The translations under genes were made by a program, and so were the position numbers. Under the pieces are notes generated by a model. It searched no databases. It was given only the letters and a program-made list of their open reading frames with translations, and was not told the DNA's origin. 64,000 nucleotides of DNA from assembly GCF_900100365.1 (NCBI RefSeq), contig NZ_FNKU01000001.1, forward strand, positions 3,224,001-3,288,000, in the 5' to 3' direction. Source of the DNA: Pseudomonas cannabina (GTDB taxonomy: Bacteria; Pseudomonadota; Gammaproteobacteria; Pseudomonadales; Pseudomonadaceae). Below, in pieces: positions 57,398 to 64,000 of this stretch; positions within the stretch are counted from its first letter, which is position 1; every line of letters begins with the position of its first letter.

Positions 57398-58534
57398 ATG
57401 ACTAACGGACGCGATCACCGAATCGACTTCTTTCGTGGCCTGGCGTTGATCTTCATATTCTGGGATCACGTGCCGGACAACCCGTTGGCGCAACTGACCT
57501 TGCGCAACTTCGGCTTCAGCGACGCCGCGGAGGTCTTTGTTTTCCTCGCGGGCTACGCGGCAATCATGGCCTATGGGCGCATCGCCCGACGCGACGGCAT
57601 GCTGGTGGCTGGCGTGCGGATTCTGCGCCGCACCTGGGTGCTGTATGTGGTGCACATCTTTTTGCTGACCCTGCTGATGGGTATCGTGTTTGTTGCCAAT
57701 AACCATGTCGAGACCCGCGACATGGTTCAGCAGATGGGCCTCGAATACTTCGTCGGTAACCCGCAACAGGCACTGGCCGACGAACTGCTGCTGCGCTTCA
57801 AACCCAACCTGACCGACCCGCTGCCGCTGTACATCGTCCTGCTGCTGACCTTGCCCCTGATATTGCCGTTGATGCTGCGCAAACTCGAAGTGGCGGTCGG
57901 CCTGTCGATTGCCCTGTACCTGATGGTGCCGCTGTTCGGCTGGAATCTGCGCGCCTACGAAGGCGGCGGCGTGTGGTACTTCAACCCGGTAGCCTGGCAG
58001 TTGCTGTTCATCCTCGGCGGTGCCTGCGCGTTGCGCAGCGAAACATCGACGACACCGGCGCGCCCGCCTCTGCAGCAACAGCCGCTGTTCATAATGGCCG
58101 CCGTCTACGTGTTGATCGCCGGGGTCCTGACCTTCAGTGAAAAATGGCCCGGGCTACACGCCACACTGGTATCGGCCCTGCACCTCGACAGCCTGTATCC
58201 CATCAGCAAGACCGACCTTGCGCCGGCTCGTTTGCTGCACTTCCTCGCACTGGTCTACGTCGTCGCGCAACTGCTGCCGACCTCAGGCAACTGGCTCGAA
58301 AACTGGCCCGCCCGTCAGATCTGTCGCATGGGGCGTTATTCACTGGAAGTTTTCTGTCTGGGCGTGTTGCTCGCTCCGCTGGCAGACATGGCAAATGCAC
58401 TGGCCGGCGATACGTGGCCGATGCAGGTGACGACGGCGATAGCCGGGTTGGGATTGATGATGCTGATGGCGAACGGGTTGGAGTTGAATAAGCGCTTGGG
58501 TAAGTATCAGAGTCACGTAGCCGTTCAAAATTGA
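57398..58534 (+). CDS. OpgC-family membrane protein
   Basis: The 378-residue integral membrane protein has about ten hydrophobic segments and the OpgC/acyltransferase-3-like start RIDFFRGLALIFIFWDHVP. OpgC transfers succinyl groups to periplasmic glucans in other bacteria; whether this protein does so is not shown. It has its own terminator and no opgGH neighbour. Confidence 0.88.
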   Translation: MTNGRDHRIDFFRGLALIFIFWDHVPDNPLAQLTLRNFGFSDAAEVFVFLAGYAAIMAYGRIARRDGMLVAGVRILRRTWVLYVVHIFLLTLLMGIVFVANNHVETRDMVQQMGLEYFVGNPQQALADELLLRFKPNLTDPLPLYIVLLLTLPLILPLMLRKLEVAVGLSIALYLMVPLFGWNLRAYEGGGVWYFNPVAWQLLFILGGACALRSETSTTPARPPLQQQPLFIMAAVYVLIAGVLTFSEKWPGLHATLVSALHLDSLYPISKTDLAPARLLHFLALVYVVAQLLPTSGNWLENWPARQICRMGRYSLEVFCLGVLLAPLADMANALAGDTWPMQVTTAIAGLGLMMLMANGLELNKRLGKYQSHVAVQN

Positions 58535-58548
58535 AAACATGAACGCAA

Positions 58549-58577
58549 AAAAACTGGCAAAAAATTTGCCAGTTTTT
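58549..58577 (+). terminator. Terminator between the OpgC-type gene and the frameshifted secreted-protein gene
   Basis: AAAAACTGGCAAA pairs with TTTGCCAGTTTTT around AAA. It lies between convergent genes and is symmetrical, so it can act on both. Confidence 0.92.
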
Positions 58578-58587
58578 GAGATTTTAT

Positions 58588-59516
58588 TTATGGGGTGCTG
58601 CTGACTAGATTCTGATGGCAGATATGACCGACTTGCCCCCTGTCAGGGTAAGGAGTATGGATCCCCGTGTTTCCAGCATAAAAGCTGTTGACCGTCCAAC
58701 GGCCTTCAAAATATTGGGTGCGCCAAACATGTGTCCCCCTGTCTTTTTCAGTAAAAATACCCGCATCGTTGCCGCCGACACAGCGACCAATATCTACGAC
58801 TGTCCGAACTTTTCCCAATGCGTCAGTCTTACCAAGCCACCCAATCGAGATTTATCAGACGCTGGCAGATCGAACGAGTATGAAGCAATGCCTCCTTCCA
58901 AAGGCTTTCCAGTCGAGTCAGCCATGTCGATCTCCAGGACCACCTTACTTATCCCTTGGGCAGACAGCGGCCCCAGCGTGGACGCATCAGGAGGTATTCT
59001 CGACATGCCGAACGGCTGATCTCGCAAGCGCGCATAAGTGACTTTTGGAAACGAACCCAGTATCAGACCGTATATGGAATCTTTCTCAAACGGTTTCACT
59101 TCGTTATGAGAAATCCGAGCAATCACATCTTGGCCAGGCGCCAATGAAGAAAGCACAATTTTCTGACCACTGGCAATTGTATTCCATTTGAAGCCATCGT
59201 GAATCTCCAGTTGCAGCGATCCGGACAGATGCCCTTGAATCAGTACCTTCTGCCCGCGAAATGCAGTGAATCCATAGTAATGGCTGTCCGCCGCACTTAC
59301 TAAAAAATCCTTGATTATATTAAGTTTGTCAGGGAGCACTGTATATTTTGGCTCCACAGACTCCGCTTCTCCTGACTCATTAACACGCCCAAAACCCTCC
59401 GATCCGTATACCTGATTTAGGGTGTCCTGATGCGGTTCTTGCGCTATTGCGAGCGGGTGTAATACGAACGTCAGCAACGAGAAAATCAGAATTTTTGCCA
59501 TTTTTTGGTTGTTCAT
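58588..59516 (-). pseudogene. Secreted protein gene with a frameshift, function unknown
   Basis: The ATG at 59516 has AGGAG upstream and opens a frame with a signal peptide (ILIFSLLTFVLHPLAIAQ) and about 240 residues of beta-rich sequence, ending early at 58794. The next frame carries on to 58588 with protein-like sequence (VRTVVDIGRCVGGNDAGIF, GRWTVNSFYAGNTGIHTPY) but has no start of its own. Adding one base to the G run read from 58840-58842 would join them as RLGWLGKTDALGKVR. So one base was probably lost. A sequencing error or programmed shift cannot be excluded. I do not recognise the family. AT content is raised, as in the genes to its right. Confidence 0.7.
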
Positions 59517-59977
59517 AAAATTCTCCTGTTATTAGTAAAACTCACTAATCAGGACGTAATAGAAATAATACCAAGCGGTCAACCACAAATCGAAAAATAA
59601 AGAAACCTCCTACAAAATAATTAAATTCTCTATTTTTGGGAATATTCCTACAGCTTTATCAGCAAAAGTTTTTTTCAAGCATGCCGTTAATAACGGTTGA
59701 CCATGAAAAAACAGGTGCACAATGAATATAACTCCGAACTACATCACCGCACAGGAATGGCAAAGCCTGTTTGAGAAAAAAGACCCTGCTGTCTTGGTTC
59801 CTATGACCAAGCTCTCCATCGAACCAGAACCAGCAAAACAGCGTGACCCGAACGCTGAGTTTTACCGCAAGGAGGAAACACCTTGGTTTGCCGGATACAA
59901 GAAATCGGAAGACGGCCGCGCCGCGCTAGAAAACATGCTTGAAGAAACAGCGACAGCTATTAAAAACGAGTATTTAA

Positions 59978-60077
59978 GGAAGGTCTGAAAAAGCCTTTTC
60001 TTCAAAAGTCGAAGCCAGTAAATACAGGCGCTCCAGCCCGGTTCCTCTCCAAAAAAATGGGCTTTTTCAGAGGATAC
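59978..60077. mobile_element. 100-bp miniature element with IS5-type TTAA duplication
   Basis: The ends GGAAGGTCTGAAAAAGCC and (reversed) GTATCCTCTGAAAAAGCC match at 14 of 18 bases, with 12 identical bases TCTGAAAAAGCC. TTAA stands on both sides (59974-59977 and 60078-60081), fitting the YTAR target of IS5-subgroup elements. There is no coding capacity. Its loss with one TTAA repairs gene A exactly. It is unrelated to the other miniature element in the same gene. Confidence 0.8.
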
Positions 60078-60202
60078 TTAAAAGCCGAAGTCAAACAATT
60101 TGATAAAACAATATACCGCATGTTTGATGATTATCATGAATTCAAAGAGCAACTTCGCTACTTGAACCCTGAGCTGTCAAAAAAGCATTTCGGCTTTACC
60201 TT

Positions 60203-60302
60203 GGGAGGCGCTGATTTATTCGATTTTTCGTCCCTGCAACGCTCTGGAGGCCTTGATTTATCTGGGGGCAACAGCTGGGTTTTAGAATAAATCAGCGTCT
60301 CC
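60203..60302 (+). mobile_element. 100-bp miniature element (MITE), copy in gene A
   Basis: Its ends GGAGGCGCTGATTTATTC and (reversed) GGAGACGCTGATTTATTC form an 18-base terminal inverted repeat with one mismatch. The flanks show a 3-base duplication, CTT or TTG depending on how the boundary G is assigned. The whole 100 bases are identical to the reverse complement of the copy in gene B. The outer GGAGRCGCTG equals the ends of the IS5-family element downstream, whose transposase probably moves it. Confidence 0.85.
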
Positions 60303-61320
60303 CTTGGGGTTTAATGAGCAGATTCAGGTGACCGATCCCGACGAGGTGCTTACCCCTGCTGAATTTACGTACCTGACAGAGGCGCTGAACTCGCGGGAGC
60401 AGCTGAAGGATGATTTGAAGGCCCATGCAAAAATCGTGATGGGCCTGCTTGATCACTATTCGGAAAAATTTGACAGCCAGTACAAACTCAATCTGGAAAA
60501 CTACAGCAAAGTCATCGACTACGGGCAAATATTCAGCCGTAATCATATTGGCAACTATATGGACACCATTATCTATCAGATTGAGCGCAATGCGCCAAAG
60601 CATGAGGACGAGGAAGAGCGAAAGCCCTTGGTCGATATTCATGCTTGAGCGACTCCGGCAGGATTCAGCCGTGACGCGGATCACATAACGCCATTCCCTC
60701 GGATTTTTCCCACATAGTTATCAGCCCAAGTTTTTCCTGAATTTGCCGTTAACCAAAGTACTCACTATTCAGCAAGGAGCTCGATATGAACATCCCCCCA
60801 GCAAGTATCACGCGGTTGAATTCTCTGATACCCGTCCCGGCTTCCGCGCGAACGACACCATTGGATACTTTGCCTGAAACCAAATCTACACTAAGCACAA
60901 AAGAAGCGGCTGCAAAAGCATTTTATACACGTGAGGATCAGCCATGGCTAAACAGACCTTATCGATATACTGATCACACCCAACCAGAAGTAAAAACCGA
61001 AATACGCTCGATGACCAAGCAAGAATACATTGAGGATGCCTATGCTTGGTCCGGCCTTATGTCAAGAATTGAGTCAGATCACCTTAGCAAATTCAGAAAT
61101 GAACTCATGGAGTTACGTCCCGATTTGGCGGGCATTAATTTCAGTTACACGCTGGGTGACGACGCAGAATTGAAAATCATCAACCTTGACGGAAAACTTG
61201 GTGAACACGAATTAAAGTTTCTTACCGATGCAATCAACAAAAAAACAGATTTTAAAGAAGCTGCACGCGAACATGCAAAAATAATAATGACGCTTGTGGA
61301 CCATGACACAGAGACTTTTA

Positions 61321-61420
61321 GGGAGACGCTGATTTATTCTAAAACCCAGCTGTTGCCCCCAGATAAATCAAGGCCTCCAGAGCGTTGCAGGGACGAAAAA
61401 TCGAATAAATCAGCGCCTCC
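61321..61420 (-). mobile_element. 100-bp miniature element (MITE), copy in gene B
   Basis: It is base-for-base the reverse complement of the copy at 60203-60302 (allowing one boundary base). It is flanked by TTA on both sides (61318-61320 and 61421-61423). It interrupts gene B at DTETF. The right TTA is also the left flank of the first IS copy, so the two insertions share one triplet. Confidence 0.88.
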
Positions 61421-61423
61421 TTA

Positions 61424-62633
61424 GGGAGGCGCTGCAAAAATAGCCAACTGTCCCCACCCTTGGCACACTAAGTTCCTTCAACAGCCTCCCTCTCCGTGAG
61501 CGTTACGCGCGTGCAGAAGACCTTCTCCGAACTCGAATATACCGGCAAGAAAAAGCAGACTCGCCGAGATCGCTTCCTGGCTGACCTTGAACAGTTGGTG
61601 CCCTGGGCCCTGCTGGAGGCGCAAGTGGCGCCGTTTTATAGCAACACCGCAGGCAAGCGCGGACGCCCTGCGATAGGGGTGTCGCGCATGTTGCGCATGT
61701 ACGTCGTGCAGCAGTGTTTCGGTTTCTCCGATGAAGGTTGCGAAGATGCCGTCTACGACAGCCAGGCCATCCGCGGTTTTATGGGTATCGACCTGGGTCG
61801 CGAGTCTGCACCGGATGCCACCACCTTGCTGCGTTTTCGCCGCTTGCTGGAAGTCCATCAGCTAACCCGGCTGCTGTTTGAAACGATTAACCAGCATCTG
61901 GCCAGCCGGGGGCTGCTGCTCAAGGAAGGCACTATCGTCGACGCTACTCTGATCGCCGCGCCGCCCTCGGTCAAGAACCGAGAAGGCAAGCGTGATCCTG
62001 AGATGCATCAGGCCAGGAAAGGCAATCAATGGCACTTTGGGATGAAGGCCCACATTGGTGTAGACGCCACGTCGGGGCTGGTGCACAGCGTAGTAGGGAC
62101 GGCCGCTAACGTGGCGGATGTCACCCAGGTTGGCCAGTTGCTTCACGGTGACGAAACCTATGTTTCGGGTGACGCTGGATACACCGGTGCGGCCAAGCGA
62201 CCGGAGCATGCTGAACGGGACGTTATCTGGTCGATTGCAGAACGGCCAAGCAGTTACAAGCAGCACGGCGAAGGCAGCGTGCTGTATCGGGTCAAGCGCA
62301 AAATTGAATATGCCAAGGCGCAACTGCGTGCCAAGGTCGAGCACCCCTTCCAGGTAATCAAGGTGCGCTTCAATCATCGCAAGGTTCGCTACCGTGGGCT
62401 GGAAAAGAATACAGCGCAGTTGTTCAGTTTGTTTGGGTTGGCCAATCTGATGCTGGCCAAGCGGTATTTACAACAGACGGCAGGATAAATCCGTCTGAAA
62501 GGCGGGACTGGCCCGCCTTTCAGCAAAATGAGGGCAGAAATCTGCTCGAGAAACGTAAAATAAGGCCGGCAGGTTGAAAAAAACCGGCTTGGAAATGGGG
62601 ACGGTGCGAACGGGTTAATTGTTCAGCGTCTCC
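61424..62633 (+). mobile_element. IS5-family insertion sequence, tandem copy 1
   Basis: The 1210-bp element has left end GGGAGGCGCTG and right end CAGCGTCTCC (inverted GGAGACGCTG), flanked by TTA. It holds one transposase gene and, after it, a perfect 12-base hairpin (CTGAAAGGCGGG-ACTGG-CCCGCCTTTCAG, 62495-62523). The 3-bp duplication suggests an IS1031- or ISL2-like subgroup. Confidence 0.9.
61496..62488 (+). CDS. IS5-family transposase (copy 1)
   Basis: The 330-residue DDE transposase has an N-terminal DUF772-type domain (GRPAIGVSRMLRMYVVQQCF), catalytic Asp in TIVDATLIAAPPS, second Asp in VSGDAGYTGA, and Glu in the R-X3-E-X6-K signature RAKVEHPFQVIK. It starts with GTG. It is identical to the copy at 62709-63701. 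It appears intact, so the element may be active and may mobilise the 100-bp MITE in trans. Confidence 0.93.
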   Translation: MSVTRVQKTFSELEYTGKKKQTRRDRFLADLEQLVPWALLEAQVAPFYSNTAGKRGRPAIGVSRMLRMYVVQQCFGFSDEGCEDAVYDSQAIRGFMGIDLGRESAPDATTLLRFRRLLEVHQLTRLLFETINQHLASRGLLLKEGTIVDATLIAAPPSVKNREGKRDPEMHQARKGNQWHFGMKAHIGVDATSGLVHSVVGTAANVADVTQVGQLLHGDETYVSGDAGYTGAAKRPEHAERDVIWSIAERPSSYKQHGEGSVLYRVKRKIEYAKAQLRAKVEHPFQVIKVRFNHRKVRYRGLEKNTAQLFSLFGLANLMLAKRYLQQTAG

Positions 62634-62636
62634 TTA

Positions 62637-63846
62637 GGGAGGCGCTGCAAAAATAGCCAACTGTCCCCACCCTTGGCACACTAAGTTCCTTCAACAGCCT
62701 CCCTCTCCGTGAGCGTTACGCGCGTGCAGAAGACCTTCTCCGAACTCGAATATACCGGCAAGAAAAAGCAGACTCGCCGAGATCGCTTCCTGGCTGACCT
62801 TGAACAGTTGGTGCCCTGGGCCCTGCTGGAGGCGCAAGTGGCGCCGTTTTATAGCAACACCGCAGGCAAGCGCGGACGCCCTGCGATAGGGGTGTCGCGC
62901 ATGTTGCGCATGTACGTCGTGCAGCAGTGTTTCGGTTTCTCCGATGAAGGTTGCGAAGATGCCGTCTACGACAGCCAGGCCATCCGCGGTTTTATGGGTA
63001 TCGACCTGGGTCGCGAGTCTGCACCGGATGCCACCACCTTGCTGCGTTTTCGCCGCTTGCTGGAAGTCCATCAGCTAACCCGGCTGCTGTTTGAAACGAT
63101 TAACCAGCATCTGGCCAGCCGGGGGCTGCTGCTCAAGGAAGGCACTATCGTCGACGCTACTCTGATCGCCGCGCCGCCCTCGGTCAAGAACCGAGAAGGC
63201 AAGCGTGATCCTGAGATGCATCAGGCCAGGAAAGGCAATCAATGGCACTTTGGGATGAAGGCCCACATTGGTGTAGACGCCACGTCGGGGCTGGTGCACA
63301 GCGTAGTAGGGACGGCCGCTAACGTGGCGGATGTCACCCAGGTTGGCCAGTTGCTTCACGGTGACGAAACCTATGTTTCGGGTGACGCTGGATACACCGG
63401 TGCGGCCAAGCGACCGGAGCATGCTGAACGGGACGTTATCTGGTCGATTGCAGAACGGCCAAGCAGTTACAAGCAGCACGGCGAAGGCAGCGTGCTGTAT
63501 CGGGTCAAGCGCAAAATTGAATATGCCAAGGCGCAACTGCGTGCCAAGGTCGAGCACCCCTTCCAGGTAATCAAGGTGCGCTTCAATCATCGCAAGGTTC
63601 GCTACCGTGGGCTGGAAAAGAATACAGCGCAGTTGTTCAGTTTGTTTGGGTTGGCCAATCTGATGCTGGCCAAGCGGTATTTACAACAGACGGCAGGATA
63701 AATCCGTCTGAAAGGCGGGACTGGCCCGCCTTTCAGCAAAATGAGGGCAGAAATCTGCTCGAGAAACGTAAAATAAGGCCGGCAGGTTGAAAAAAACCGG
63801 CTTGGAAATGGGGACGGTGCGAACGGGTTAATTGTTCAGCGTCTCC
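62637..63846 (+). mobile_element. IS5-family insertion sequence, tandem copy 2
   Basis: Second 1210-bp copy in direct orientation, separated from copy 1 by a single TTA (62634-62636) and followed by TTA (63847-63849). I noticed no base difference from copy 1. It carries the same downstream hairpin at 63708-63736. The repeat period is 1213 bp. Confidence 0.9.
62709..63701 (+). CDS. IS5-family transposase (copy 2)
   Basis: 330 residues, identical to copy 1 at 61496-62488, with the same GTG start, DDE residues and R-X3-E-X6-K signature. Copy 1 lies upstream in the same direction, so transcripts may read from one to the other. Confidence 0.93.
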   Translation: MSVTRVQKTFSELEYTGKKKQTRRDRFLADLEQLVPWALLEAQVAPFYSNTAGKRGRPAIGVSRMLRMYVVQQCFGFSDEGCEDAVYDSQAIRGFMGIDLGRESAPDATTLLRFRRLLEVHQLTRLLFETINQHLASRGLLLKEGTIVDATLIAAPPSVKNREGKRDPEMHQARKGNQWHFGMKAHIGVDATSGLVHSVVGTAANVADVTQVGQLLHGDETYVSGDAGYTGAAKRPEHAERDVIWSIAERPSSYKQHGEGSVLYRVKRKIEYAKAQLRAKVEHPFQVIKVRFNHRKVRYRGLEKNTAQLFSLFGLANLMLAKRYLQQTAG

Positions 63847-64000
63847 TTAAAGGACTCTATGGTCTTAGCCTGATGAATTTTCAGGATGTTATAGATTTGG
63901 GCCTTATAGGGGCCAGCAAAAAAAATGACCCACGCGAGATATGGATAAACCAGGTCAAGCAAAATGCGGACAAGAAAGAAACATCTTACGTAGACATACG

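What the first reader, a model, noticed from the sequence alone, without database searches (positions are those of the whole stretch)
59722..60648. Excising two unrelated 100-bp miniature elements restores one intact 239-residue ORF
Gene A looks like three small ORFs. Deleting 59978-60077 with one TTAA (104 bases) and 60203-60302 with one CTT (103 bases) joins them in frame without any stop. Two independent element types, each with its own target duplication, both repair the frame when removed. That fixes the element borders and shows automated annotation would report three false genes.
Basis: seen in the sequence. Interest (0 to 1): 0.78.

Follow-up and report, generated by a model that had tools for sequence, protein, structure and literature searches.

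The report
Gene broken by two miniature transposons
A small bacterial gene of unknown function has been broken by two tiny jumping DNA elements, one already described and one that has multiplied to hundreds of copies in this genome, while close relatives still carry the gene whole.

Summary
The finding holds in substance, with one border corrected. Window 59722-60648 is one gene of unknown function seen as three ORFs, interrupted by two miniature transposons (MITEs). Element 1 (59978-60077) is MITEPsy1, published in 2011. Element 2 is 99 bp (60204-60302) with a 4-nt target repeat CTTG, not 100 bp with CTT; I found no name for it in the papers searched. The genome holds 508 exact ends of it, so about 250 copies. 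Its outer 10 bp and YTAR target are shared with a 1209-bp IS5-family element next door (92 left ends), the likely source of its transposase.

Searched apart, the three pieces match consecutive stretches of natural 239-aa homologues in Pseudomonas cannabina and P. syringae pv. cilantro; the latter locus has neither insert.

The locus is decaying more widely: the neighbouring paralogue is split by another element 2 and two IS copies, and the gene upstream has a frame break. The gene family has no Pfam assignment but a distinctive sigma-28-like promoter. A MITE-made pseudogene is ordinary; element 2's abundance and the promoter-marked family are the newer parts.

The parts
59666..59689 (+). sigma-28-like promoter motif AAGTTT-N11-GCCGTTA before gene A
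   Evidence: 0 expected in 100 shuffles, 2 found in the window; 14 of 16 positions of the published FliA consensus
59722..59977 (+). gene A, first piece (ORF runs on to a stop at 59988 inside element 1)
   Evidence: matches residues 1-85 of P0007
59974..59977 (.). target repeat TTAA, left copy; right copy 60078-60081
59978..60077 (+). element 1 = MITEPsy1, 100 bp
   Evidence: ends identical to Table 3 of PMC3189936; 64 exact left ends in the genome; 33 of 33 copies examined have a 4-nt repeat
60078..60203 (+). gene A, middle piece (annotated ORF starts at 60057 inside element 1 and ends at 60290 inside element 2)
   Evidence: matches residues 84-127 of P0007 and of the L076 protein
60200..60203 (.). 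target repeat CTTG, left copy; right copy 60303-60306
60204..60302 (+). element 2, 99-bp MITE without a name in the papers searched
   Evidence: 508 exact ends in the genome; 57 of 65 copies with a perfect 4-nt repeat
60304..60648 (+). gene A, last piece (114 aa, true stop at 60648)
   Evidence: matches residues 126-239 of P0007
60728..60751 (+). same promoter motif before gene B
   Evidence: 13 of 16 consensus positions
60786..61319 (+). gene B, first piece (paralogue of gene A)
   Evidence: matches residues 1-178 of the 230-aa protein of L076
61322..61420 (-). second copy of element 2 in the window, TTAG on both sides
61425..62633 (+). IS5-family insertion sequence, 1209 bp, first copy
   Evidence: ends read; transposase 335.6 bits against an IS5_4 cut-off of 140
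62638..63846 (+). same IS, tandem second copy
63852..64000 (+). gene B, last piece (runs to the window end)
   Evidence: matches residues 180-229 of the L076 protein, at 63852-64001

Best explanation
Gene A is a pseudogene made by two separate transposition events. MITEPsy1 went into a TTAA and a 99-bp MITE of another sequence into a CTTG; each duplicated its 4-nt target and each brings a stop into the reading frame it meets. Neither element codes for a transposase, so both were moved by enzymes supplied in trans. For MITEPsy1 the published candidate is the transposase of ISPsy2. For element 2 the best candidate is the 1209-bp IS5-family element found next to it. Shown: the elements, their borders, target repeats and copy numbers, and natural uninterrupted homologues. 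Inferred: the enzymes and the order of events. The lost protein belongs to an uncharacterised family found in plant-associated Pseudomonas, probably expressed from a sigma-28-like promoter; what the strain lost is not known.
For: Element ends identical to published MITEPsy1. 508 exact ends of element 2, 64 left ends of element 1, 92 left ends of the IS, 0 in reversed controls. Perfect 4-nt repeats in 57 of 65 element 2 copies, 33 of 33 MITEPsy1 copies (overlapping loci, so a few may count twice) and 12 of 16 IS copies. Pieces match consecutive stretches of natural 239-aa proteins. A relative at about 95% identity over the 1.6 kb before the first insert aligns in consecutive blocks with neither insert. 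Outer 10 bp of the IS ends equal those of element 2.
Against: CTTG is not a YTAR site; among the 57 element 2 copies with perfect repeats only this insertion and its duplicate on C3 use it. Eight of 65 element 2 copies lack a perfect repeat. The shared ends of the IS and element 2 are only about 10 bp long. Movement of element 2 was not observed. In PMC3189936 ISPsy2 itself was not seen to move although MITEPsy1 was.
Confidence: 0.94

Rival explanations
1. Element 2 is mobilised by the transposase of some other IS5-family element, not the 1209-bp one.
For: The IS shares only about the outer 10 bp with element 2, whose own repeats are 18 bp. Related IS5-type elements such as ISPsy2 and ISPsy19 exist in P. 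syringae.
Against: The same left/right pair of end variants, the same YTAR 4-nt target and 92 left ends in the genome. No longer element with the full 18-bp ends was met: the 11 solitary ends inspected were MITEs whose second end has a variant base.
Confidence: 0.3
2. The three ORFs are real separate genes and the arrangement is ancestral; relatives lost the two blocks by deletion.
For: All three ORFs have a possible start codon.
Against: The second ORF begins inside element 1 and ends inside element 2. Both blocks are dispersed repeats with target duplications. Six of eight relatives' loci show one ORF of 236-258 aa; in the other two the match is on the strand I did not print. Natural 239-aa proteins match all three pieces.
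Confidence: 0.02
3. The inserts are assembly artefacts.
For: Contig C3 starts with a 4.3-kb near-copy of this locus with 32 gaps and 1 mismatch, which looks like an error-rich contig end.
Against: Site-specific 4-nt repeats at both inserts, and the same two elements at the same places in both contigs.
Confidence: 0.02

Closest known systems
MITEPsy1 (PMC3189936; passages seen)
   Same: Element 1: 100 nt, the two printed 18-nt ends, a 4-nt duplicated target, insertion into coding genes.
   Different: 64 left ends here against six copies in strain 1448A. Targets here include TTAG in 15 of 33 copies and one TTAT; the paper gives CTAG or YTAA.
MITEPsy3 of P. syringae pv. actinidiae (PMC6053426; passages seen)
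   Same: A MITE of about 100 bp at high copy number that breaks genes.
   Different: 102 bp, 78 copies, ascribed to ISPsy25 of the IS630 family; element 2 is 99 bp with YTAR targets.
IS5-family 1209-bp element (IS52-like; the name is recalled, no call confirms it)
   Same: Outer 10 bp and YTAR target shared with element 2; transposase in NCBIfam transpos_IS5_4. Identical 1209-bp copies in 11 of the 12 plasmid records listed, of 55 that match.
   Different: Carries a transposase; inner ends differ from those of element 2.

Membership tests
MITEPsy1 (element 1) | 100 nt with ends GGAAGGTCTGAAAAAGCC and GTATCCTCTGAAAAAGCC | tested here: met
MITEPsy1 (element 1) | 4-nt duplicated target, CTAG or YTAA | tested here: met
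   TTAA here; 33 of 33 copies have a 4-nt repeat, though 15 are TTAG and 1 is TTAT
MITEPsy1 (element 1) | able to transpose | not testable with these tools
   shown for strain 1448A in PMC3189936
MITE (element 2) | under 300 bp, terminal inverted repeats, no transposase | tested here: met
   99 bp, 18-bp ends; stops fall in all three forward frames
MITE (element 2) | dispersed copies with target duplications | tested here: met
   508 exact ends; 57 of 65 copies with a perfect 4-nt repeat
MITE (element 2) | ends and target shared with an autonomous IS in the same genome | tested here: met
   outer 10 bp and YTAR shared with the 1209-bp IS; only the outer part is shared
MITEPsy3 of PMC6053426 | sequence identity to the 102-bp element | not tested
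   sequence not held; length differs
IS5 family (1209-bp IS) | transposase over the family cut-off | tested here: met
   335.6 bits against 140 for transpos_IS5_4
Evf virulence factor, PF18270 (gene A) | Pfam gathering score of 25 bits | tested here: not met
   last piece 17.9 bits; natural homologues 12.6 and 13 bits in 2 of 5, none in 3 of 5; L076 protein 16.4 bits
HrpL-controlled effector genes (gene A) | hrp box GGAAC-N14-18-CCAC upstream (motif recalled) | tested here: not met
   0 of 11 upstream regions of gene A and B family members; this does not exclude secretion
FliA (sigma-28) regulon (genes A and B) | promoter TAAAGTTT-N11-GCCGATAA | tested here: inconclusive
   14 and 13 of 16 positions, the two best + strand sites of the window, but the A of GCCGATAA is absent in both window sites and in all 28 sites of the relatives; the likely flagellin promoter of this genome scores 11, while unrelated places reach 12

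The most novel reading that the evidence does not exclude
This genome carries the outcome of a burst of an IS5-related MITE that no paper I searched describes (about 250 copies of 99 bp, beside about 92 copies of its probable parent). The burst has hit one four-gene locus again and again, and the two central genes of that locus belong to a plant-associated Pseudomonas family with its own sigma-28-like promoter. The repeated damage reflects selection against the product in this lineage, not mere chance.
Probability: 0.15. Interest if true: 0.55.

Novelty: new member of a known kind. Interest (0 to 1): 0.3.

Why it matters
It shows how two elements of about 100 bp can turn one gene into three false ORFs, and it fixes the ends and target of a very high-copy MITE that I did not find named (searches). 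About 250 copies is roughly three times the 78 reported for the most numerous repeat of a kiwifruit-canker strain, and more than the about 100 in two related strains (PMC6053426, passages). Such repeats are sites for recombination and markers of strain history. The promoter-marked gene family gives an experimental handle on proteins that carry no informative name.

Full report
Where it lies. The window is G000:C1:3224001-3288000 of an unnamed 6.39-Mb genome in 9 contigs. The nearest named locus found is Pseudomonas syringae pv. cilantro 0788_9 (L076; 94.7% DNA identity over the 1.6 kb up to the first insert, 99.2% between the inserts, 82-85% further on). A 239-aa P. cannabina protein is also close. 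The genome therefore belongs to the syringae group; its species was not established.

Element 1. Window 59978-60077 has exactly the ends printed for MITEPsy1 in Table 3 of PMC3189936 (passages seen). That paper gives 100 nt, 18-nt repeats, a 4-nt duplicated target, ISPsy2 (IS5 family) as likely source, and insertions into coding genes. Here there are 64 exact left ends (35 + 29; reversed control 0). In the 30 loci L001-L030, 33 of 33 copies have a perfect 4-nt repeat: TTAG 15, CTAA 8, TTAA 7, CTAG 2, TTAT 1 (loci overlap, so a few copies may be counted twice).

Element 2. Its ends are GGAGGCGCTGATTTATTC and GGAGACGCTGATTTATTC. The finding gave 100 bp and CTT; other copies settle the border. 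In 20 sources (L096-L114 and the window, several picked because they are rich in the element) there are 65 full copies, 60 of them 99 bp long, and 57 with a perfect 4-nt repeat: CTAA/TTAG 27, CTAG 19, TTAA 9, CTTG 2; the last two are this insertion and its duplicate on C3. So the element is 99 bp, and CTTG is an unusual target. The genome holds 508 exact 18-nt ends (255 + 253; reversed control 0). With two ends per copy this is about 250 copies; copies with altered ends are missed.

Probable mover of element 2. At 61425-62633 and 62638-63846 stand two tandem copies of a 1209-bp IS whose transposase scores 335.6 bits against a cut-off of 140 for transpos_IS5_4. Its outer 10 bp, GGAGGCGCTG and GGAGACGCTG, are the same pair as in element 2. 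Of 16 copies examined, 12 have perfect 4-nt repeats, all YTAR. The four without are one each in L109, L110 and L112 and the second window copy. There are 92 exact left ends in the genome. Shared ends and target make it the best candidate; this is inference.

Gene A. Pieces were searched apart. They match residues 1-85, 84-127 and 126-239 of P0007 and 1-86, 84-127 and 126-239 of the L076 protein. Window and L076 align in consecutive blocks: window 58370-59977, 60075-60205 and 60302-61318 against L076 1647-3256, 3250-3380 and 3374-4390. Among eight relatives' loci from a genus sample (8 of 297 other genomes matched), six (L062-L066, L068) show one ORF of 236-258 aa; for L067 and L069 the match lies on the strand that I did not print. 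Named relatives: 25 loci, all Pseudomonas. In a wider sample the last piece matched in 1 of 81 genera. Of 41 database proteins none has an informative name. Four of the five entries that I printed are shorter than full length (P0008, P0010, P0026, P0040), so some strains may have other damage or partial records; not followed.

The locus. In L076 the order is: a 309-aa protein (-), gene A of 239 aa (+), gene B of 230 aa (+), a 302-aa protein (-). The outer two are 31% identical to each other, and gene B is a diverged paralogue of gene A. In the window the first outer gene changes frame near 58830, gene A is split by two MITEs, gene B is split by an element 2 copy and two IS copies, and the last gene matches over its full length, 85% identical. 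A further, degenerate element 2 lies downstream (L112:1125-1223).

Promoter. AAGTTT-N11-GCCGTTA stands at 59666-59689 and 60728-60751, before genes A and B (2 found, 0 expected in 100 shuffles). The looser AAGTTT-N11-GCCGNTA occurs 4 times in the whole genome: these two and their duplicates on C3. The reversed-pattern control occurs 2 times, so the genome count alone is not striking. The relatives are: 18 of 25 loci have it before the matched gene; 7 do not (L085, L086, L087, L092-L095, some of which begin late or lack upstream DNA). All 28 sites in the 25 loci are on the + strand; 26 are followed 35-61 nt on by an ORF of the A/B family, and 2 (L073:1572, L074:1574) are not. The motif resembles the FliA consensus quoted in PMC7286023 (passages), but FliA is not shown.

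Novelty. MITEPsy1 and its gene breaking are in print. Searches for MITEPsy1, for miniature inverted repeats in P. syringae, for MITE with P. savastanoi and IS5, for P. cannabina, and for MITEPsy3 (listings), with passages of PMC3189936, PMC6053426, PMC10969869, PMC6354349 and PMC3191145, showed no element with the ends of element 2. Papers outside that library, and supplementary files, were not searched. The finding is right in substance and ordinary in kind. Its useful by-products are the corrected, very abundant element 2 and a promoter-marked gene family of unknown function.

Noticed in passing
window 59666-59689 and 60728-60751 (+); 18 of 25 relatives' loci: A sigma-28-like promoter motif precedes genes A and B and most of their relatives; 26 of 28 sites in the relatives lead into a family member.
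   Followed up: partly
window 60786-64000: Gene B, paralogue of gene A, is split by an element 2 copy and two tandem 1209-bp IS copies inserted at the same place.
   Followed up: yes
window 58591-59516 (-): The outer gene upstream matches a 309-aa protein of L076 in two different frames, so it is broken too, or the assembly has an error there.
   Followed up: partly
G000:C3:1-4276 (L110), like window 59545-63846: The first 4.3 kb of the 160-kb contig C3 repeats this locus with 1 mismatch and 32 gaps and then departs at the IS end: an error-rich or chimeric contig end, or a real duplication.
   Followed up: partly
genome G000: Very heavy load of small mobile DNA: about 250 copies of element 2, 64 MITEPsy1 left ends and 92 left ends of the 1209-bp IS, often inserted next to one another.
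   Followed up: partly
L112:1125-1223 (window position about 65125-65223): A further, degenerate element 2 just downstream of the locus, absent from L076.
   Followed up: no
literature: The name MITEPsy3 is used for two different things: an element with Tn3-like ends in PMC3191145 and a 102-bp MITE ascribed to ISPsy25 in PMC6053426.
   Followed up: no
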